DNA of 64,000 nucleotides from Phlegmacium glaucopus (lineage: Eukaryota; Basidiomycota; Agaricomycetes; Agaricales; Cortinariaceae). Shown in pieces: positions 1,563 to 49,324 of the stretch. Position numbers and translations under genes: made by a program. The notes beneath the pieces were generated by a model. That model saw only the letters and a program-made list of their open reading frames with translations. It searched no databases and was not told where the DNA came from. The number at the start of each line of letters is the position of its first letter. Positions within the stretch are counted from its first letter, which is position 1. The stretch covers positions 371,873-435,872 of the forward strand of contig MU130698.1 in the NCBI GenBank assembly GCA_015039465.1. Direction: 5' to 3'.

Positions 1563-1975
1563 TGTTAGGGGACACCCGACTTTAACCCAAACCTCAACTC
1601 TAGAATCATACACCCCACCTTTCCGACGACCTCCGACCTTCCGTCCAACTCTGCTTCCATCACCGGTTGACTCCGGAATCCCGTAGTTCTGCTCCGACTC
1701 CGGCCCTCCGATTCACTCCGTCTTTTATTTCTATTTTTCATATCGCACCACTTCTTATTTAATTAATTAATTATTATCGTATCATTCCTTTATTTATTTT
1801 ATATCTCCGTTATGTCCATATTAGTACTTAAACACCCCCAGCCTAGCAGGGATCCCCATCCTTTCCTCTTTGGATCCCCTGCTAGGTAAGTCACTTGTAG
1901 ATATCTTTTCTGAAATATTATTAACTTTGGATCCCCTGCTAGCTTGACTAAGTCAGCGTCGCAGTTGCCCTAACA
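1563..1975 (+). mobile_element. Solo LTR of a Ty3/gypsy element (413 bp)
   Basis: It starts TGTTAGGG and ends CCCTAACA, a short inverted repeat with TG..CA ends. It is flanked by a perfect 5-bp direct duplication, TTGAC at 1558-1562 and 1976-1980. A same-length copy (7844-8256) closes the gypsy fragment downstream; the two differ at about 23 positions by eye, nearly all transitions. Because this copy has its own target duplication and no internal domain follows it, it is a solo LTR left by LTR-LTR recombination, not the 5' LTR of the downstream element. Confidence 0.9.
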
Positions 1976-3784
1976 TTGACCTTCTCTGGAGTGTTGTGAC
2001 CCAAACAATCGAGTTTAAAGATATTTGTGAAATCTTTATGCAAGTCCAATGAACAACTTTCATGGGCCTCTGGTATGCACATGCCATGCCAGTGTCATGT
2101 GTACATAAGCAGTGACATCGACATAAGACTTAAACAAAGACAAGATGTCTATCACTGACGTCCCAAGGAGAGAGACAGCGAAAGGGTACAAAAGATGAGT
2201 CTGCACAGATTCACATTCGTCCCTTCGCTCACTGTCTCTCCCAGGTATGATTCCCAGGTTTCATACTTCCTCGTAGTTTCCCTTCACTCACAGTTTCTCA
2301 CAGAGACTGATTTTGTAGTACCAGAGACTAGTTTATTCAACACCCACCCACCCACCCACTTCCTTCATCAGAAAAAGTCCACCCGTCTGGCATGTCTGGC
2401 AGGTCTGGCAGGTTTACTGCCAGAAATCCTCATCATCCCATTTTTCCTCAGAATTTTTTTCATAGCCACAATTATATGATTTATATCATAAATGCTCAGA
2501 ATTTACATTTCATCAGACATTGGTCAGACAGGTAACCTTATTGCTATAAAATGCTTCCCTCCAGAAAACACCAAGTTTGTTCAAACTCCGACACATGTGA
2601 CTTTGTTGATTGATGTTCAACATTCTCCGCCTTGGTCTCTTTATCTCTTACCATCATCATCTACCTCTGCCCCGCCGCATCTCACTATCATGACACACAA
2701 AGTAGTGTCGTCATGTTAACCACAAGAGCCCACAACTAGTTAGAAAGTGACTGGTACGTCTCTCAGCCTTTATATCATATTTGAACTCATCATCCACCAC
2801 AACTTGAACACTCAAGGTACCATGCAATGGTAAGGTGACTACCCCTACCACCACCACGGCAACTGTGATCATGACAAACCACAACGGCAGTGACCGGGAC
2901 CAGGATGGTGATTAGGACGGCAACATCGTCCCCAAATCATGAGGTAAGCTGTTGCTGCCTCTTGGTTTTCTCACACCCCACCCTCACACTGCACCCTGTC
3001 CAGCACAACCTCACCTCGAGTGTGATGTACCACCTTTGTTGCTAAATTCTAATCCACACAGACAATTGCAACCAGGGCATCAACAACACAGACAACAACG
3101 CCAGCATGGGGATGATAAATCACAATCAGGTATGTAGTAAACGTTCCCATTTGTTGCTGCAAGTCAATGCCTCTTTAACTACTAACTCGAAATTCCTTTC
3201 CTCCTTGCAGATCATGCATGATGATGCTGCTCCTGTTCTGCTCTCCGACGCTGGCAGTGCTGTGATGGTAAGTAATTGGGCTCCCCTTAGATTCCAACAC
3301 CCAGCTCACCATTCTCTGTCCCGATTGTAGTTATATATGCCACATTATGACGGTATGTTATTAGCCATGTACCTTGTCAGTCGCACACATCTCCCTATGT
3401 AAATTGTAATCAATATCTACTGTGCTAGTATAATGCATTTATTTGACATCACCCAAAAACTGTCCTGAAAACTGTATTCCCGGTGATGAAATGACAAGCT
3501 GACAAGCTTATGACACACCTGGGTCAGAAAATATTAATGTTGCCAGAAAACTTTCCAGTGTCAGAATCCATTTCTGGAGTGTGAAAGTTTTATGGCGTTG
3601 GGAGTGTCATTATGTCGCCATACCAAATATGGCAGTCTGGTGACGTCTGGTTCGTCTGGCGCCAGACGAGCCAGACGGATGGAGGTTTGCTGATGTTCCT
3701 TCTATCATGTATCTTTGCTAGTACCAGCTGTACCTAGTTAGAGATATAAAAGACCTTAGACCGGTTTGGTGGCTCTTAGTGCTC
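1976..3784. other. No gene seen; GTCTGGC-rich flanks
   Basis: Short open frames only, none with recognisable family features. GTCTGGC/GCCAGAC runs at about 2388-2412 and 3640-3680 face each other, suggesting an old inverted-repeat element, but no target duplication was found. A few GT-AG-like spacings (for example around 3125-3210) do not join into a convincing protein. Confidence 0.45.
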
Positions 3785-4266
3785 ATTTTCTTTTGGTGGC
3801 AACACCCTTAAGTTGCATACACCCCTTGAGTGTTTGTTTGACTAAACTTCACTAAAGGGGATCGCCGTGATCGTTGGACTTCTGGAAAGAAAGGTTCTAG
3901 TTGTTGCGCAATTCCTGAAAGGTAGGAAGCAACTGATTTAGGGTTGATGTGGTGGGACATGTAGACAGTGAAGAAAGACAGGGTTTTGGGTGATGGATCT
4001 ACGGGCATACTGTGGATCTGGACAAATGTTAAATAAGAGTTTAATGTGGAATTGTATGATTTTAGAGTTGTCATGTCAATTGCTTGACCAAGGGCAATGG
4101 CTTGTTCTTGGAGGAGCTGGTCTCTAGACCAGGCAACATGCTGGGGCTGTCTAGATGGGATCGTGGAAGAGATCATACTGCTGACCCCACCAGGCCAGGG
4201 GGATGGAAAGTGAAGAATCTAAGAGCCAGTTCATGGAAGAGAGCTACTGAGAATTTAACTTGTGAC
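3785..4266 (-). pseudogene. Tyrosine-recombinase fragment of a DIRS-like retroelement
   Basis: Minus-strand remnant of the N-terminal SAM-like domain of a transposon-type tyrosine recombinase; recognisable strings are TLKSYNSTLNSYLTF, SPKTLSFFTVYMSHHI and SVASYLSGIAQQLEPFF. After a one-base frameshift near 3815 it runs on through a TLKGC..KGVATKRK segment to a stop near 3787. The C-terminal catalytic R-H-R-Y region is absent, so it cannot be active. Upstream on the minus strand the reading continues (with frame breaks) to the 8-bp site CTTGTGAC at 4259-4266 and resumes in the RNase H fragment at 10822-11314, so both are pieces of one element split by the hAT insertion. Confidence 0.7.
4259..4266. 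repeat. Target-site duplication CTTGTGAC (left)
   Basis: Eight-base direct repeat identical to 10822-10829, immediately outside the TIR that starts TAGTGTTTGGAAGTC at 4267. Eight-base duplications are the hAT hallmark. The site lies in the coding sequence of the tyrosine-recombinase retroelement, whose RNase H and recombinase parts it separates. Confidence 0.9.
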
Positions 4267-5479: not shown

Positions 5480-7843
5480 GTGATGTACCTGCAGTGGGAT
5501 CAGACCGCAAGTAGTAAAGTAGTTTGTGGGGTTAATGTAGATTTCCTCGATAGAGTTTTAGAAGAGTTCGCAATATTGAACCCCGTAAAAGTTGCTGGAG
5601 TAGCGGAATGGCCAATTCCGACAAACAAAAAGGAAGTCCAGTCATTTCTAGGCTTTACCAACTTTTACCGAAGGTTCATCCAAGACTTTTCTCATCACAC
5701 CCATCCCTTGTTTGATCTCACTAAAAGTGACGTTAAATGGAGATGGAATATGGAAGAGCAGTTGGCGTTTGATTCTCTCAAAAACCATCACTTCAACCCC
5801 GATTCTAGCCTCTCTGGACAACTCCAGGCCATTTCGCATCGAAGCAGACAGTTCCGACTTTGCAACCGGAGCCGTACTCTCCCAACAATCCCTCAATAAT
5901 GAGAAATGGCACCCAGTCGCGTTCCTGTCTAAATCCTTGTCTCCGGTCGAGTGGAACTACGAGATCCACGACAAAGAGATGCTAGCAATCATCCGAGCCC
6001 TAGAAGAGTGGAGACACTTCTTCGAAGGAGTGGAACACAACTGCGAGATCTGGACTGATCACAAGAACTTGGAATACTTCATGACAGCCAAAAAGCTCAA
6101 TTGGAGACAAGCCCGTTGGTCATTGTTCCTAGCCCGGTTTGATTTCCTCATGCACCACAGACCAGGCAAAAGCATGGGAAAACCGGATGCCTTGTCCAGA
6201 CGAGCGGATCATGGAACCGGAACTGGTGACAATGACAACATCACACTCCTAACTCCAGGCTTTTTCGCGATTCGGGCCTTAGAAGGACTGGAAGTCATAG
6301 GAGAAGAACGAGACATCTTGAAAGACATCCGGAAGGGCACCCGGGAAGGTGTAAAAGAAGAGGCCATAGCTAAAGTGGTAAAGGAGTTGAAAACCACTCA
6401 CACACAATCCGTCCGATGGGCAGAATGGTCTCATGACAACGACATCCTCTCCTTCCAAGGAAAAATCTACGTTCCGGACATGTTTGACTTGCAAAGACAG
6501 ATTGTATCCCTCTGCCATGACACCCTAATTGCTGGGCATCTGGGGAGATGGAAGACCCTTGAACTCGTATCCCGAAACTATTGGTGGCCACAGATGTCCC
6601 AATATATTGGAAAATATGCCTCAACCTGTGACCTGTGTCTTCAGACTAAGGCTCAAAGACACCACCCAGTCAGTGAACTCCATCCCCTCCCGATTCTGAA
6701 CGCTCCATGGGACACAATCAGTGTGGACTTCATAGTGGAACTTCCAGAGTCTTCAGGATACGACTCGGTAATGGTAGTAGTTGATTCGGTCACCAAACGA
6801 GCTCATTTTGCACCAACCCTTACTACCACCTCCGTGTCCGGAACTGCCAGCCTTTATATCCAACATGTCTGGAAACATCATGGACTACCCTGGACAGTGG
6901 TATCAGACAGAGGACCACAGTTCGTAGCGGAATTCACGTGTGAGCTCTACCGGATCCTTGGAATTAAGTTAGCAGCCACTACCGCCTATCATCCGCAAGG
7001 AGACGGCCAGATGGAACGAGTAAATCAGGAACTGGAACAGTATCTCTGACTCTTTACAAACCAGCGACAAACCAATTGGGCTGAACTCCTTCCCCTTGCG
7101 GAATTCCAGTACAATAATCATGTCCACTCCGCCACACAGCACCTACCTTTCCTCCTAGACTCCGGATGAATCCCCCGAATGGGTTTTGAACCGAACCAAC
7201 CGGAATCCCAAATGGAGTCCGTTAATGAATTCACAGAACAAATGCGGAACACCCTAGATGAAGTGAAAGCAGCACTGGTCAAGTCTAAAGACAACATGGC
7301 AAGATATTATAATCAGAAAAGGACTTTGGCACTGGAATACAAACTGGGAGACAAAGTATACCTGGATGCCAGCGACATACAAACAACGAGACCATCCAGG
7401 AAATTGTCCCATCGGCACCTAGGCCCCTTTCCGATTGAAGAACGAGTCGGCAACAACGCTTACCAACTCCAACTTCCCTTGTCCATGAAATGACTCCATC
7501 CGGTCTTCAACATGGTCAAACTGAACCCAGCCCCGATAGACCCGATCCCTGGAAGACACATTCTGACTCCTCCACTTCCGTAAATTATTGATGGAGAAGA
7601 GGAATGGGTCGTCAAGGAAATCCTCGACAGCAGAGTTATAAACAGGAGGTTCTGATACCTCGTGAAGTGGCAAGACTTTGGAATTGAACATAACACCTGG
7701 GAGCCTCAGGAAAACATACACGCCCCCAAATTAGTCACGGAATTCCACAAGGAGTACCCCAGAGCTCCTAAGCACATCAGGATGGCCAAATTCGAACAGT
7801 TTCCTTTCGTGCCGGGATGTCACCTACCGAAGGGGGGGATGGA
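5480..7843 (+). pseudogene. Chromovirus (Ty3/gypsy) pol remnant: RT end, RNase H, integrase, chromodomain
   Basis: The coding remnant begins in the C-terminal part of reverse transcriptase (PVKVAGVAEWP, SFLGFTNFYRRFIQDF), so gag, protease and most of RT are missing. A frameshift near 5790 leads into RNase H (PFRIEADSSDFATGAVL; YEIHDKEMLAIIRALEEW; PDALSR). Integrase follows, with a zinc-finger region (AGHLGRWKTLELVSRNYWWP.. CDLC), catalytic Asp in DTISVDFIVELP, second Asp in VVSDRGPQFVAEF and Glu in QMERVNQELEQYL. A C-terminal chromodomain (EEWVVKEILDSR.. YLVKWQ) marks a chromovirus. In-frame stops at 7047, 7167, 7491 and 7653 are TGA where relatives carry CGA; a TAA lies at 7581. A polypurine tract (about 7829-7843) abuts the 3' LTR. 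Inactive. Confidence 0.9.
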
Positions 7844-11872: not shown

Positions 11873-14800
11873 TCAGCTGCTCTGCCTCATTCTGCCTGCC
11901 CTGAAGATGGTATGTCTTGCTAGATTTGCCATGCTGTTCAGGGTGTCTGTATGTCCTGCACCAAGCAGCCTCTTTATCACATCCATAACTTGAACCTCCA
12001 GTTTCTCTGCCTCATTCCACCTTCCCTGATGCCTGTATGTGCCTGCTAGATTTGCCATAATGTTGAGGGTGTCTGGATGTTCTGCACCAAGCAGCTTCTT
12101 TCTCATGTCCATAACTTGAACCTCCAGCTGCTCTGCTTCATTCCACCTTCCCTGATTCCAATATGTGTGCTAGATTTGCCATACTGGTGAGGCTGTCTGG
12201 ATGTTCTGCACCAAGCAGCTTCTTTGTCATATCCATAACTTGAACCTGCAGTTGCTCTGCCTCATTCCACCTTCCCTGATGCCTATATGTGCTTGCTAGA
12301 TTTGCCATACTGGTGAGGGTGCTTGGATGTTCTGCACCATGCAGCTTCTTTCTCATGTCCATAACTTGAACCTCTAGTTGCTCTGCCTCATTCCACCTTC
12401 CCTGATTCCAATATGTGTGTGCTAGATTTCCCATACTGGTGAGGCTGTCTGGATGTTCTGCACCAAGCAGCCTCTTTGTCACATCCATAACTTGAACCTC
12501 CAGTTGCTCTGCCTCATTCCACCTTCCCTGATTCCTGTATGTGCTTGCTAGATTTGCTATATTTGTGAGGCTGTCTGGATGTTCTGCACCCAGCAGCCTC
12601 TTTGTCACATCCATAACTTGAACCTGCAGTGCTTCTGCCTCATTCCATCTTCCCTGATACCTGTATGTGCTTGCTAGATTTGCCATACTGATGAGGGTGT
12701 CTGGATGTTCTGCACCAAGCAGCTTTTTTCTCATGTCCACAACTTGAACCTCCAGTTGCTCAGCCTCATTCCACCTTCCCTGATGCCTGTATGTACTTGC
12801 TATATTTCCCATAATGTTGAGGGTGCTTGGATGTTCTGCACTAAGCAGCCTCTTTCTCACATTCATAACTTGAACCTGCAGTTCCTCTGCCTCATTCCAT
12901 CTTCCCTGATTTCTGTATGTGCTTGCTAGATTTGCCATGCTGTTGAGGGTGTCTGGATGTCCTGCACCAAGCACCTTCTTCCTCATGTCCATAACCTGAA
13001 CCCTCAGCTCCTCTGCATTGCCCCAGTCCCCATTCTCCCACATTACTAGTGCAAAATTGTCCCATTTATCATCATAGTACTCCTTGATAAGTCCTATCTC
13101 CCTTCCATGTAATTCATTAGCCTTTACATGTGGGAACATCAACCGTCGCAGGGCATAATCCTGACTCTCAAACCTCCAAGGAATTGCACAGGACAAGATT
13201 ATGCTTCCCATCTCACACATTCTTTGCTGCTCAGACCTTAACATTCTCTCCCGGCTCCAGTAGTGCACCAGAGGATGAATAGACAACAATTTAGATGATT
13301 GTCCTCTTTTCATCAGGGAGAAAGAGAGAAGAACACTAACACCTTGTCCAAAGATGAAGTCATCCCAGTGACCATCATTGTCTAACTCAAGCAGAGTATG
13401 ATCCAGTAATGTGGCTGCCTGAGGTAATTTTCCAGCTCTTTCACTATCAACAATATGTTTCATGGTCTCCTCAGCAGCAGATTGGAATATCTCTTTAGAA
13501 ATGTTGCTATGATGAAAGAAAGCACTTATTTGAAGAATCAGGATTGCAGCCTGTGCTGCTTGTGCATCTCCAGCAGTGGAATGTCCACCAGCCCTCCTTT
13601 CTATCTCTTTGAAAGAAAGATCCCAAGTCCCATACACTGTTCTATCATACTTTGATGCTCCTGTGAATGTAGCATCTGACATAAGTGCATGACGATGTAC
13701 TGAGAATTGTCTCAGATATTTATCAATATCACATTTCCCAGCCTCAATGTAGGCCCCAGCATGATTAACAGCAAGAGGAATGCACCCAAGTTCAGTCACA
13801 ATCTTTTTGGCATCTTGTACATGCTCAGGCAATGGCTCCAAACAGCCAGCCTTAAGAAGTAGAGTTATAGCATCTGCCTCCTCCATTTCATGGATCTCAA
13901 TTTTGTTCTCAAATGATACAATCCTTCCCATGGATCCATTTCTGCTAGTAACCAGAATATTACCTCTGTCTCCTGGAGGGAAGAACTTGGCCACCACCTC
14001 TGGAGGAGGATCATCAGCATTATCAAACACAATCAACCATTCTTCTTGGAGAGATGATATCCACTGGAGGATAGACTCAACTGAGCCATCCATCCCAGGA
14101 CCTTGTGCAGCAGAAAGGGTAAATATGCTCTTGAGAGACATTCCAATGCTCTCCTGAGAGGAGGCATCAATCCAGAACACATATGAAAAACTAACAAGAA
14201 ATGAATCCAGTGTTGTGAATGGAAAGTAAGAATCCTTACTTGTCAGACATTTTTTCTATGAATTTGAGACAAATCTGTGTCTTTCCAATTCCTCCCAATC
14301 CCCAGAGGAGACATGAGCACCTTGACATCAGTCTACTATTACCATGATGAACAAAAATCTTTTGAAGTTTATCAAGTACATCTTGCCGTCCAGTAAAGAT
14401 TGGACTGGAGTTGGGTTTTTGAGTCACAAGGATATTCATCTGCCTTTCACCGCTATTGGCAGGCAGACTAATGTTCTGTATGTACAATTATTGCTGGATT
14501 ATACCCACAACCTACGAGAAAGACTCACGAAAGTGCCGCCAGTGATAAGGATATTCTGGGCATTCGCAAAGACACCCAAGACAGATTGTTGAGCCTGCTG
14601 ATCATCAGCGAAAGCTGAGAACACCTGGTGTAACCAACTCACGGAGGGATTTTGTTCGGATTCAGTGGATCTCAAGTTAGCTTGCATTACGGCATCAGAC
14701 GAGGAGGGCGAATTTCCTTCTGGACGGGCTACAGGTGTAACCGCCAAAGCGGAAACTGAAGTGGAGACTTGAAGTCCATGCGTAGTCTGATCGAAGATGA

Positions 14801-18852: not shown

Positions 18853-20697
18853 ATGCCACCGGTACCAGTGAAGACGAAGGTTTCGACTACGAAAGACCAA
18901 TATCAACATTACATTCCAAGATTTATTTTGCGATATTTTCAGAGTGGCACACCTCCATCATTGTACGTAGCTCACTCACTGGCAAGATGATCGGCAAACA
19001 CTTATTGGTGGGTATACAGGACGAAACGACAACGAACGAAATCATTCCGCAAAGCCCATAAGACAGGCGTAGATACAGAAAGCATTTTCTACTACGATGT
19101 TACAATGGGAGTTCTCCAAATCCGCCCGGTCGCAAGGGTATACGGTAGAACCAACCTATACCGCGACATGTCAGACCTGTACGACGTCGACCACCTCGAA
19201 GCAAAATTTTCTCGATTAGAAAACGACGCTTCAGTTGTTATAAAATCCATTCACGCCTCTATACATTCCCACAAATTCACCACGACGAGGAAAGAGCTCG
19301 CGCTACTGCGAAAGTTCATCTTTCTGATGCACTATCGCAATGACGCGGTCTCTAACACGTATTTCCAGGAAGACCATCCAGAAAACGCTCCACTTGTCGA
19401 TTGGATACGAAAAGTGAAAAAAACTCGCGGTTTGGAAACGGACCATGACGTTTGGCTTCACGGGTTGAAATACTATCTGGAAACACCGCATCATACTATA
19501 GTTGCAACTGCGGAATGGGTTCGAGAGGAGGTTGGGGATCACAGATTTCAAGAAATGTTGAGGAGCCGCGTCGCATTGGATATGGAGGATTGGTATGCCA
19601 TCGACTATGAAACATTGGCTAATTACTTCTTCCTCGGTATTTGGGAGGCAGCGGACGACTCAGAATTCGTTTTGAGCGGAAACGGATTTGGCCTTTGGGA
19701 AGGCCTGATCGATGGCGATCCCGGGGCTCATAGGTTATATATCGTGAGCCCCAGGATCGCGATTGTCCTGCGTCGTACTCTACTTCATAATGCACATCCG
19801 AACGATCCTGCTATCTTATACAGCTGCCTGGCAGAGATACCAATCGCAGAAACCCACGTACAGTATGTTGACGAGAGTTCTGTTCTCTTTGTGGACGACG
19901 AGGACGTTGATCCTGAGCTCACGAAACGGGCTCGAATGTCATATAGGACATCGCAGAAAGCACAGGAAGACCGATTCACGCTAGGAATCACCAAACTCAC
20001 GCGCTCGCAAACATACACGGTCAACGAAGTCTTGATGCTAAACATAAATCTTCACCAACACGGCTCTCTCAGCTTTTCGACAGCAAGAATTATGCTGGAT
20101 ACCGTGTGTACGTACATGATGTCCAACAATACATTTCTCGGAAGAAAAAGGTCCCTTTTTCGCCCACTACTGCTTGAATTAACCGACATTCAAAAAGACT
20201 ATGTGGCCGCCTCTGCCTCTACCGCGATCTATACACCAACTGTGGACACAGACGCCGACGTTCAACTAAACATGCTACTCCGGTTCACTGTTATGAAAGC
20301 GATCGATTTTCCCTCAAATTACAACAGGGCCTATCTCATCTTCCACATGGCCACCGACGGTCCTTCACTACACAACGCCGTTTCATTCAACATTCGCAAA
20401 CTATGTTTCGACGCCACATCCAAGTTGAAGTCCTTCTTGGACCCCCCTTGCTTACCTTGTATATCTAATTTATCTTCTAATAGAATCACCGAAACGTTAG
20501 CGAGAGAAGAATCCGAGTTGTTTTTCGCACTTGTTGGGTACCAGGTAGAGAAATTGGATGTAGGACGATACACCAATGATTTGTTGGGGAATATTATATA
20601 TGAGGCGGCGATGATTGGGGTGACACATTGGTTGGCGGAGAACAGGTATGATATTTTGAGCGATCTTTTGTATCCATGGATGAAAATAGTTATTTAA
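18853..20697 (+). CDS. DUF4238 domain protein
   Basis: Two exons, 18853-18962 and 19020-20697, with a 57-nt intron (GTACGT..ACAG); 1788 nt, 595 residues. The ATG at 18853 was chosen because the first exon then encodes the family's N-terminal signature, QYQHYIPRFILRYFQSG, which a single-exon reading starting at 19105 would miss. Further family motifs are TESIFYYDV, RVYGRTNLYRD, LRKFIFLMHYRND, YFQEDHPENA, GFGLWEGLIDGDPG and IVSPRIAIVLR. DUF4238 proteins occur in bacteria and expand in Agaricomycetes; their role is unknown. The frame is intact. Its 5' flank has a copy at 227-632 and a coding fragment of a second copy lies at 18240-18363, so the locus has been duplicated before. Confidence 0.92.
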
Positions 20698-45346: not shown

Positions 45347-45573
45347 TTTAAAACTAGGGACTAACACAGACCGACAAGATCCGGTTGCTACCCGTGACCA
45401 TTTTATCCGGATACTATTTATGGGTATCCATACCTAAATATAGCAAACCAGGGATATCCAGATAAGCTAGTACTAAATATAGATCAATTTTCAATTTCCG
45501 CTGTCACGCGTGATTCTGCAGTCTTATCAATTGCTGTGCGTGGTTTTGGGACTTTGCTTCCTTTCCCCCCTGC

Positions 45574-46784
45574 TTGTCAGATGTTATGCCTCCCAGGGCT
45601 GCTCCCAAGGCTGCTAGGGCTGCTCCTAAGTCTTGTAAGGCTGGAAAATCTGCTACTGTAGTGCCTGCAGCTTCTGTAGCCCTTACTGATCATGCTGATC
45701 ATGTACCACTGAACCCACCTGTTACTCCACCCCCACGGCCACAGGTCTGGGCACATCAGCTCTAGTTTGAGACCCCAGGAGAGCGCTTTCCTTCAGTATC
45801 CCCAGGCTCAAGTGATTCAGATGTAGGAATGCTTGTTACTGAGGATGTTTTTGCTCCTCCAGTCCTTATCTCACCCATCAAGCGACGCCAGAGGCAAGCT
45901 GCTCCCACAATCAATCGGCTCACTGATCTGGAGGTCTGGGAGATGAGTGATGAAGAGATTGTTGGTATGTATATTTGATAAACTTTATTACTAAATATAA
46001 ATAAATGAATTCTTTAAGATGCAGCACAAATGTCGTGGAGATCTGAAGTATATGACCACTACGACATTGGTCTGCGACGTGATTTTACTCCAACACGTGA
46101 ACCCCTTTCTCTGGCCCTGGTGTTCACCTGCAAAACCCATCCCCATCATCATCCATCTGTCCAAACTCGCTCACGGGGAAAAACAGGTGATGGAACAAGC
46201 AATCTGCAGAAGGACATTGATATGTGTTTGAGGAAGCAAGGCCATGAACGTGTAAAACCAGAATCGGGGACTATTCCTTACTCTGAGCCAGCTCACCGTG
46301 CGCTTATTGCGCTGTGCAAAAAATGCTCGTCCAATCAACTCTGTCCTTGACGATGACTATAAGCTTGAGGTTGAAATGCTACGGCCTGGGACTAAGATTC
46401 CACATCCAATGACAGTTCAACGGGATTTGCTTTATATCTATGAGCAGGCTTCAATTGCGGTGAAGAATTATTTTTTGGTGTGTTATTTTTATTGTAAAAT
46501 TAAAAATTTGCTTATACATTGAATACAGCAACTGAATAGTACTATTCACCTTGCTCTTGATGGATGGACTTCCCCACTCATTTCCTCATACCTTGGTCTT
46601 GTGGTTGTCTGGTTTGACCAGGGAGTAATTCACCGAGCAATTCTAGAATTCATTCGGTGTGTTATGATTTATAAAATATCATGATTTCCTTCATTCCTCA
46701 CTTCTTTTTATAGCTTAACCCAAAAACATGATGGACGGTATCTGGCCACTGTTACAGCTGATTGCTTGAAACATACGAACACGG
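45574..46784 (+). pseudogene. hAT transposase, N-terminal exons
   Basis: Normal-strand part of the gene. A Pro/Ala-rich start (MPPRAAPKAARAAPKS) is followed by an intron at about 45965-46018, then a BED-finger-like region (SEVYDHYDIGLRRDF, LALVFTCKTHPHHH), RPGTKIPHPMTVQRDLLYIY, and after further introns HLALDGWTSPLISSYLGLVVVWF and HDGRYLATVTADCLKHTN. It carries an early TAG at 45763 and a frame break near 46320. The continuation is not found downstream in any normal frame but in the plain reversal of 46785-48422. The family product catalyses cut-and-paste transposition; this copy is probably inactive. Confidence 0.85.
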
Positions 46785-48422
46785 TAAGAACTTTCCGATC
46801 CAGCTGACAAAACATCAACTATGGTTATAAAGTATATAGGAGGACGAAGATATTACTCCACACTCCCCTGTTATGAAAGACGTTTTATACGGACTTACCT
46901 CAGTTCTCCTATAAACGACCTCGGTCTTCTACACCCTCGTCGGGTAAAACTGAAAAGGATCTTAGATCTCATTCTTATATAAACTTAAATACCGAATCTT
47001 TAATATGATGGAACCAACAGAAGAAATACTGACCTTAGACCCTGACACGTCTACGTATTCTAAAACTGGTAGCCAAATGATGGTCGAAAAACTAGAGGAA
47101 ATTGGTAAGACTACTTTGTGTCAGAAAGTCGGTGACTTCGAAGACTAGTCCCATGTATTGAACAAATCTCTACAATCGTTAATTTAATCTATTCTTTCTT
47201 TTTTATTTAACGTGGTTCACGCTATTGTATCTAAAGTGTTAGGGTACAATTCAGGTATATGAACAATTAATTGTTTTGAGGTCGTACTCGTCGTTAGGTC
47301 TACTGACGTCCACAAAGTGGTCTTCTCCTATACAGTCTCTACAGTAGGAGTCACAAGACCTGAACTAGGGTTTGTTGTCGGACATTTGAGAGGACTTCTA
47401 TCTTATTGTATCCTACCCGTAGGTGTTATTCCCCTTGGAGACGAACTCTCTTTTCTTTTCAATCTAGAAATTTTTCGATAGGTTTTTTAATCTTCTTTAA
47501 CTATTATTTATTTTCCTACATTTACGGAAATTCTGGAGTACTTGTAGTAGACGATTAACGGTGACAAGAAGACTTTCCGCCATACCGACGTTGAACAACG
47601 GTCTTTGTGGACAATATCGGAGTTATTGTAAAAATTTCACGTTTACACGTCGTTCCGTTAGTTTCAGTCTCAAGGTAGTTCACCCCTGTACCGCTAGTTC
47701 TCGTGTAAAACGTCAACATTCGAGTCCTAGGACCAGTTATTCGAGGACCTTAGAAAGTAAATCACACCTACTCAGTACTTATGTTGCACGTTCAGGTCTT
47801 TGGATCTCTTCTAAATCTTGTTGTGACCTTTATAAAATTTTACTGATATGGCTCCCTTTCTCGAAGTCTCGGTAGGCGGAAAGACGTAGTCTGTAGTGAT
47901 GTGGAAATCGGAGGTAAAGTATATGACGTTATAGAGCTTCTCTGAACTGTTGACGTAGTAGTACCCGATCGACTGGTAGTAGGAGGACTCATAAAAGGAG
48001 ACTCAACTAATTTTGAACGAGTCAGCGTCGTTTTAATAGTAGTAGTAGTAGTAGATCAGGGAGGGGTCCTAGGTTTTGGTGGAGGTGGAGTGACCACACT
48101 AATAGACGACCTTAACACTGTCTAAAGAAGTGAAAACCCAAAAACTTTTTCTTTCTTTACTTCTAGATCTATCTTTATTAATCAGTTGACGAATTATTAT
48201 TATTTAGAACAATGAAAACGTTGTTCTAATTCATATACCCAGTTTGTAGCGTCAGCACGTAGGTATGGGACCTTACATCCTTATATCAGTCCATCGTTGA
48301 GACGCTCAAACAACGTCAATGATCACAATAGGTACGTATATGGTTCATCGATATTTTTATTGTTATATTCATATAAAATCTTCTGTTGTAATAAAAGAAA
48401 TGGACAACTAGTTCTGGTCTGA
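46785..48422. other. Segment stored reversed without complementing (assembly error)
   Basis: Read from 48422 down to about 46785 with the printed letters unchanged, this stretch encodes hAT transposase core: MDNTSNCNKLAELLP then HILNLVAK (48238 to 48215), VMSDAERRMALKLFPS, HVPT(stop)WNSDFDCL (around 47680), LSEEQWQLADDVHEVL, AEVPLIVDAHPMLF, KLQWLKDC (around 47140) and RPSLSRMA (near 46790). Introns in that direction begin GT and end AG. Neither the printed strand nor its complement gives any such protein. DNA cannot be reversed without complement, so this is a data artefact. The left junction lies at about 46780-46790; the right border is the N gap. Confidence 0.93.
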
Positions 48423-48782
48423 NNNNNNNNNNNNNNNNNNNNNNNNNNNNNNNNNNNNNNNNNNNNNNNNNNNNNNNNNNNNNNNNNNNNNNNNNNNNNN
48501 NNNNNNNNNNNNNNNNNNNNNNNNNNNNNNNNNNNNNNNNNNNNNNNNNNNNNNNNNNNNNNNNNNNNNNNNNNNNNNNNNNNNNNNNNNNNNNNNNNNN
48601 NNNNNNNNNNNNNNNNNNNNNNNNNNNNNNNNNNNNNNNNNNNNNNNNNNNNNNNNNNNNNNNNNNNNNNNNNNNNNNNNNNNNNNNNNNNNNNNNNNNN
48701 NNNNNNNNNNNNNNNNNNNNNNNNNNNNNNNNNNNNNNNNNNNNNNNNNNNNNNNNNNNNNNNNNNNNNNNNNNNNNNNNNN
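48423..48782. other. Assembly gap (360 N)
   Basis: Run of N inside the hAT element. Reading frames reported across it are artefacts. Confidence 1.
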
Positions 48783-48964
48783 TCGTGCTGATCCAAACCA
48801 TATCCGAACCGTATTTGGCAAAATCTGTGGTTCAGTTACGGATTTGGTCCGGATCTATCCGTGTTAGTCCCTATTTAAAACATATGAATGGAGTACACAT
48901 ACTTACAGTAAACCAGCCCCATCTAGGATCGTCCATTGGTTCTTGATAGTTTTTTTAGCAGCGT

Positions 48965-49324
48965 ATGATTAATCGCAGAACATTAACATTTACCATCGCC
49001 TTTGCGGCGTCTTTTCTTCTATATCAATACTTGATGCCAGTAGTCACAGCGTTCTACGCTTTTCTGACTGCTATCCGCTACCTCAATGCCAAGTTAGCGG
49101 CAGCAGATCGATTTCTGGCCATAGCTACAGAAGAGCCAGCTGTAAGTTTCAATCTATTCCATAGTGATTTGAGCTAATATCTTCATCAGCGATGCAAACT
49201 TCTCTACAATTTCGCGTTCCTCGCTGCGCTAACCCTCATCTACTTGCTCAGACTATATTTTGCAATGTTAGCGCTACTCACGTGCACCCTCATTTATCTG
49301 CGATACATTTATTTTAGTTTGTAA
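48965..49324 (+). CDS. Small multi-pass membrane protein, 103 residues
   Basis: Two exons, 48965-49141 and 49190-49324, with a 48-nt GTAAGT..CAG intron; 59 codons plus 44 codons and a TAA. Hydrophobic segments are LTFTIAFAASFLLYQYLM, VVTAFYAFLTAIRYL, and in exon 2 FAFLAALTLIYLLRLYFAML running into LALLTCTLIYLRYIYF. The splice sites, open frame and hydrophobic pattern support a real gene, but I recognise no family. It begins about 90 bp to the right of the hAT element, whose insertion may have displaced its promoter. Confidence 0.55.

What the first reader, a model, noticed from the sequence alone, without database searches (positions are those of the whole stretch)
46785..48422. A 1.6 kb block is written backwards without complementing
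No frame of either strand gives protein here, yet the same letters read right to left encode the missing middle of the hAT transposase whose first exons end at 46784: HILNLVAK at 48238-48215, WNSDFDCL at 47676-47653, KLQWLKDC near 47140, RPSLSRMA near 46790, with introns that begin GT and end AG in that direction. Polarity reversal without complement is chemically impossible in a duplex, so this is a scaffold or gap-filling error next to the 360-N gap. Six-frame searches, mapping and repeat masking all miss it, and other patched gaps in the same assembly could be affected.
Basis: seen in the sequence. Interest (0 to 1): 0.9.

Follow-up and report, generated by a model that had tools for sequence, protein, structure and literature searches.

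The report
Gap patch written backwards in assembly

Summary
Read right to left it is 96.8% and 98.5% identical over about 1,650 nt to two normal copies in the same genome. Block plus the adjoining 360 Ns is 2,010 nt; the same interval is 2,096 nt in an intact copy.

It is not unique. Plain-reversed blocks also lie at C144 (two, about 7.4 kb), C220, C198 and C237. An alignment-free polarity scan finds reversed sequence at 16 of 30 sampled loci that carry an isolated run of exactly 25 As. Such runs occur 157 times on the + strand and once on the - strand; 24-A runs occur 0 and 1 times. They look like printed gap placeholders.

The genome is Phlegmacium (Cortinarius) glaucopus. A JGI paper naming this species says hybrid assemblies were ALLPATHS-LG patched with PBJelly. 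Best explanation: the gap filler wrote about half of its flank extensions with half a reverse-complement. It is an artefact, not biology, but systematic and detectable without reads.

The parts
45347..45354 (.). Left target-site duplication TTTAAAAC
   Evidence: Sequence; located
45355..48873 (+). hAT transposon with terminal repeats TAGGGACTAACAC / GTGTTAGTCCCTA
   Evidence: Inverted repeat found; ends located; family copies
45355..46772 (+). 5' part of the element in normal polarity (first transposase exons)
   Evidence: 96.1% to the C229 copy, ending at its position 1810
46773..48422 (.). Plain-reversed block: middle of the transposase gene printed right to left in place (C229 copy positions 1811-3460)
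   Evidence: 96.8% over 1,652 columns to the reversed C229 copy, 98.5% over 1,649 to the C198 copy; polarity score and dinucleotides
48423..48782 (.). 360 Ns, remainder of the gap; about 446 nt in the C229 copy, with the end of the transposase gene
48783..48873 (+). 3' end of the element in normal polarity with the terminal repeat
   Evidence: 96.7% over 91 nt to the C229 copy
48874..48881 (.). Right target-site duplication TTTAAAAC
   Evidence: Sequence; located

Best explanation
It is an assembly artefact. A short-read scaffold had a gap of about 2,010 Ns (now 46773-48782) inside a repetitive hAT element. A long-read gap filler extended the left flank 1,650 nt into that gap and left 360 Ns. 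When the extension was written out, one half of the reverse-complement operation was lost (reversed only, or complemented only; both print the same string), so a correct consensus stands in the correct place in impossible polarity. The same step did this at many gaps. Where extensions over-filled the estimated gap it left a 25-base placeholder, printed here as A25. Shown: the reversal, its breakpoints, the gap arithmetic, the other blocks, the A25 asymmetry. Inferred: that the filler was PBJelly or a PBJelly-like step, that a strand bug is the cause, and that A25 stands for 25 Ns.
For: In-place reversal bounded by normal flank and N gap; 1,650 + 360 = 2,010 nt against 2,096 nt in C229. C144: two adjacent reversed blocks separated by exactly 25 As, normal polarity on both sides, and the same DNA in normal polarity on C161 at 99.2% over 5,135 and 96.9% over 1,848 columns. 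C220: 191 nt reversed in place plus A25 where the true interval is 181 nt, i.e. over-filled. Isolated A25: 157 on + and 1 on -; A24: 0 and 1; A26: 72 and 1. Reversed sequence at 16 of 30 A25 loci. Plain-reversed reading restores ankyrin, TPR and reverse-transcriptase domains at three A25 loci, while printed ORFs there reach no curated cut-off. PBJelly gaps, flank extension and over-filling are described in PMC3504050 (passages); JGI hybrid assemblies were patched with PBJelly in a paper that names Cortinarius glaucopus (PMC7550596, passages).
Against: No reads or assembly log were seen. I could not read which genomes of PMC7550596 were hybrid. Placeholders are printed as A while the window's 360 Ns are N, which is unexplained. 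14 of 30 A25 loci show no reversed segment (short ones are missed: the known 191-nt block in L005 was not called). Two of 11 scanned loci without an A-run were also called, L006 weakly and L035. Two reversed copies read at an edge (C220:83745, C226:183617) show no placeholder or N in the parts read.
Confidence: 0.9

Rival explanations
1. The same artefact arose elsewhere: in the primary assembler, another gap closer or a later format conversion, not in long-read gap filling.
For: No log ties this assembly to a given tool. A25 in place of N suggests some conversion step that lost N.
Against: A residual gap (window), one-sided over-fill (C220) and two-sided over-fill (C144) are outcomes described for PBJelly. 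Blocks of over 5 kb (C144) suit long reads. The JGI paper naming the species used PBJelly on hybrid assemblies.
Confidence: 0.08
2. The block is an ordinary inversion or a rearranged hAT fragment in the real genome.
For: Inversions inside transposons are common (general knowledge).
Against: An inversion would match as reverse complement; both strands of the printed block fail against normal copies and only the uncomplemented reversal matches.
Confidence: 0.01
3. The DNA really exists in this polarity, made by a polymerase that copied in parallel or exchanged A with T and C with G ('swinger' polymerisation), and then spread.
For: A line of papers proposes systematic nucleotide exchange (search listing and abstract starts only). 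C144 and the window hold the same element in reversed polarity.
Against: Unrelated sequences are affected (hAT, ankyrin, TPR, copia-like); what they share is gap placeholders. C144's reversed DNA includes flanks outside the element and is 99% identical to normal C161. Known polymerases make antiparallel strands (established knowledge).
Confidence: 0.01

Closest known systems
PBJelly flank-extended and 'over-filled' gaps (English et al. 2012, PMC3504050, passages read)
   Same: New sequence extends a flank into an N gap; the gap shrinks or is over-filled without being joined; 25 is the tool's minimum gap length
   Different: The passages read do not mention extensions in wrong polarity, or placeholders printed as A
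hAT transposons of Agaricomycetes (9 homologues, among them P0001 of Phlegmacium glaucopus and P0007, a hAT family dimerization protein of Rhizoctonia solani)
   Same: Terminal inverted repeats, 8-bp target duplication, homologous transposase
   Different: The middle is printed backwards, part is missing in the N gap, and one codon before WNSDFDCL reads as a stop
'Swinger' sequences (systematic nucleotide exchange; search listing)
   Same: A plain reversal equals an A-T plus C-G exchange on the other strand, so such patches would score as swinger DNA
   Different: Here the sequence is tied to assembly gaps, which points to a file-writing error

Membership tests
Non-complemented reversal (assembly artefact) | Plain reversal aligns to normal copies | tested here: met
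   93-98% over about 1,460-1,638 nt in five copies
Non-complemented reversal (assembly artefact) | Block bounded by a gap or placeholder | tested here: met
   360 Ns (window), A25 at C144 and C220, A26 at C198
Non-complemented reversal (assembly artefact) | Raw reads absent in the printed polarity | not testable with these tools
   No reads held
PBJelly-type gap extension | Extension leaves a reduced or over-filled gap | tested here: met
   Window reduced; C220 over-filled by 10 nt; C144 extended from both sides; definitions
PBJelly-type gap extension | Tool recorded as used for this assembly | tested here: inconclusive
   Paper names the species and the tool for hybrid assemblies, but the table of hybrids was not read
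hAT transposon | Terminal inverted repeats and 8-bp target duplication | tested here: met
hAT transposon | Transposase homologous to hAT proteins | tested here: met
   9 proteins, one named hAT family dimerization protein, with Dimer_Tnp_hAT
hAT transposon | C-terminal dimerisation domain in this copy | not testable with these tools
   It would fall in the N gap; no Pfam hit in the part present
Ordinary inversion | Reverse complement of the block aligns to normal copies | tested here: not met
   searches both strands; the block matches only itself and two reversed loci

The most novel reading that the evidence does not exclude
A strand-handling fault in a long-read gap filler (PBJelly or the pipeline around it) wrote about half of all unjoined flank extensions in impossible polarity, so an unknown number of other deposited hybrid assemblies carry plain-reversed transposon and gene sequence. 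Strand-asymmetric 25-base placeholders and inverted CG/GC and TA/AT ratios would find it without reads.
Probability: 0.45. Interest if true: 0.65.

Novelty: not a real feature. Interest (0 to 1): 0.5.

Why it matters
It is not biology, but it is a systematic and nearly invisible error in a public reference genome. Read mapping, repeat masking, six-frame search and gene calling cannot recognise sequence printed in impossible polarity. In the 30 sampled placeholder loci the segmentation marks about 19.7 kb within 1.5 kb of the placeholder. Scaled to roughly 300 placeholders this is of the order of 200 kb, before blocks beside N gaps are counted (my extrapolation). For one LTR-like family the first look listed 132 candidates for the reversed probe (1,844 nt) and 841 for a shorter normal probe (1,073 nt). 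Likely consequences: transposon copies undercounted, genes at gaps lost, possible spurious orphan genes (the one ORF I tested had no database match), and false material for 'swinger' claims. The polarity test needs no reads and could screen other assemblies.

Tried and rejected
Ordinary inversion: rejected, both strands of the printed block fail. Real parallel-polarity DNA: rejected, because unrelated sequences are affected and they share gap placeholders. Open-frame length as a polarity test: dropped, the longest stop-free run is longer in the printed polarity. Pfam on the reversed hAT peptides: no hit, so protein homology rests. Leakage into protein databases: one printed 208-aa ORF from the reversed block at L054 has no match at E 0.001, so no leakage was shown. 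Literature on a plain-reversal bug: searches listed one and two unrelated papers, none; the passages read do not mention it. Only open-licence papers are held, so this does not show that it is unreported. Looking for the assembly by its numbers gave no paper about this genome. Recalled, not from a call: what PBJelly prints in an over-filled gap and how its code handles strands.

Full report
CHECK OF THE OBSERVATION. The reversed string of 46785-48422 matches normal DNA of the same genome at 15 places, five of them over about 1,460-1,638 nt at 93-98% identity. The printed element, searched on both strands, gives 42 matches. Normal copies are matched only outside the block; inside it the matches are the window itself, C144 (93%) and C220 (99% over 191 nt), which turned out to be reversed as well.

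ANATOMY. The element is a hAT transposon at 45355-48873 with terminal repeats TAGGGACTAACAC / GTGTTAGTCCCTA and the 8-bp target duplication TTTAAAAC on both sides. Against the C229 copy, the left part ends at copy position 1810, the block is positions 1811-3460 read backwards, and the right part begins at 3907. So the block is reversed in place, and about 446 nt are missing where 360 Ns are printed. Block plus Ns is 2,010 nt; the interval in C229 is 2,096 nt. The reversed-block protein has 9 homologues at E 0.001: the best, at 93% identity over 56% of the query, is a hypothetical protein of Phlegmacium glaucopus, and one from Rhizoctonia solani is named a hAT family dimerization protein and carries that Pfam domain (P0007). 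Pfam gave nothing for the block's own peptides.

POLARITY WITHOUT ALIGNMENT. CG/GC is 5.15 in the block, 0.78 in the rest of the window and 0.46 in the forward part of the same element; TA/AT is 1.35, 0.76 and 0.72. A strand-symmetric 6-mer ratio gives -0.19 per nt for the block, and -0.143 when no hAT copy is in the training set; the minimum over 283 same-length windows elsewhere, which were in the training set, is +0.039. Of 531 held-out 500-nt windows, 6.0% are negative, the lowest -0.083. A two-state segmentation of the window, each part scored with that part left out of training, finds one reversed segment, 46819-48965; the Ns give no signal.

OTHER LOCI. C144 carries two adjacent blocks reversed in place, 194608-196452 and from 196478 to about 202047, separated by exactly 25 As, with normal polarity on both sides. 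The 19.5-kb contig C161 holds the same DNA in normal polarity, 99.2% over 5,135 and 96.9% over 1,848 columns, including DNA outside the element, so this is not a spread transposon copy. C220:93741-93931 is 191 nt reversed in place beside an A25; the true interval is 181 nt. C198 carries a reversed stretch of about 508 nt, 99% identical when read backwards to another stretch of C198, next to an A26 run. A probe made of the reversed LTR-like repeat of C144 lists 48 matches (132 first-look candidates, 40 scored). I compared 41 of the 48 with the 171 A25/A26 places that the tool listed, leaving out seven small secondary pieces. Five of 41 lie within 100 nt of a placeholder; one of the five is the probe's own place and two share a placeholder. 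A sixth (C86) lies 148 nt away with secondary pieces filling the interval. The A25 list was cut at C184 (99 of 157 used), so the count is a lower bound, and most of the 41 have no listed placeholder nearby. Edges of four more were read in part. C237 has an A25 94 nt before the matched part; C118 reaches the contig end; C220:83745 and C226:183617 show no run of As or Ns in the parts read, and at C220 reversed polarity continues to at least 86400. The normal-polarity probe of the family, which was shorter, had 841 first-look candidates.

THE PLACEHOLDER. Isolated runs of exactly 25 As: 157 on the + strand and 1 on the - strand. Exactly 24: 0 and 1. Exactly 26: 72 and 1, as expected if a neighbouring base happens to be A. 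Allowing for such neighbours there are roughly 300 placeholders (my estimate, assuming 28% A and independence). The first 30 of the 157 places in contig order were fetched with 1.5 kb on each side. 16 of 30 exceed the largest reversed-segment score of 18 control chunks of the window. The segmentation also of 30, with one locus exchanged (L073 in, L057 out). Controls: no segment in 22 chunks of the same length that I counted off in the rest of the window and C161 (Fisher p 2.8e-5). Adding 11 scanned loci without an A-run, of which two were called (L006 weakly, L035), gives 2 of 33 (p 4.5e-5); some of those loci were in the training set. The segmentation missed the known 191-nt block of C220 (L005), so short blocks are undercounted, and 14 of 30 loci show nothing.

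PROTEINS RESTORED. Ten plain-reversed peptides were given to Pfam, two from the window and eight from seven A25 loci. Three hit: L054 ankyrin repeats (6.8e-48), L079 TPR (7.3e-58), L082 RVT_2 (6.5e-46). The other seven, both window peptides included, had none. As a control, the ten longest printed ORFs of the window block, L054, L079 and L082 reach no curated cut-off; the best is E 0.00046.

ORIGIN. A window protein (19105-20694) is 97% identical to a Phlegmacium glaucopus record on a contig of 697,528 bp, the length of the window's contig C240. Miyauchi et al. 2020 (PMC7550596, passages read) name Cortinarius glaucopus and state that JGI hybrid assemblies were made with ALLPATHS-LG and patched with PBJelly. 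That the two names are one species is recalled. I did not see which genomes were hybrid. The PBJelly paper (PMC3504050, passages read) defines a gap as 25 or more Ns, describes flank extensions that only shrink a gap, and defines over-filled gaps. PMC9635638 (passages) describes over-filling as a cause of genome inflation. None of the passages read mentions reversed extensions.

MECHANISM. Shown: in-place plain reversals at gap edges, in the three outcomes of a flank-extending filler (residual gap, one-sided over-fill, two-sided over-fill). Inferred: for extensions handled on the minus strand the reverse-complement was half done, which would explain why about half of the sampled loci are affected. 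Complement-only of the minus-strand consensus and reversal-only of the plus-strand consensus print the same letters and cannot be told apart here. Unexplained: why placeholders are printed as A while the window's 360 Ns stayed N.

VERDICT. The thing is an artefact and not a feature of the organism, but it is systematic, sits in a public genome, and can be found without reads by mirrored dinucleotides and placeholder asymmetry.

Noticed in passing
Genome G000, + strand, places: Isolated runs of exactly 25 As: 157 on the + strand against 1 on the - strand; 26 As: 72 against 1. They behave as printed gap placeholders.
   Followed up: partly
C144:194608-202047 and C161:1-10160: C161 is a near-identical (97-99%) second version of a C144 region, in normal polarity where C144 is reversed; it may be an uncollapsed haplotype or a duplicate contig.
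   Followed up: partly
C220, about 83609 to at least 86400 (L083, L084, L204): A second, longer reversed stretch on C220 with no placeholder or Ns in the parts read.
   Followed up: partly
L035:736-1129 and L006:3524-4064: Reversed-polarity calls without an A-run or Ns in the locus; L035 is repeat-rich and may be a false call or a fully closed gap.
   Followed up: no
window 47677-47679, read right to left: The codon before WNSDFDCL reads TGA where the homologue P0001 has arginine, so this copy is probably inactive.
   Followed up: no
window 12138-14180 (-) and 5712-7049 (+): A 680-aa ORF with repeated TPR-like units and an ORF resembling a Gypsy polyprotein fragment (names from the look of the translation, not searched).
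   Followed up: no
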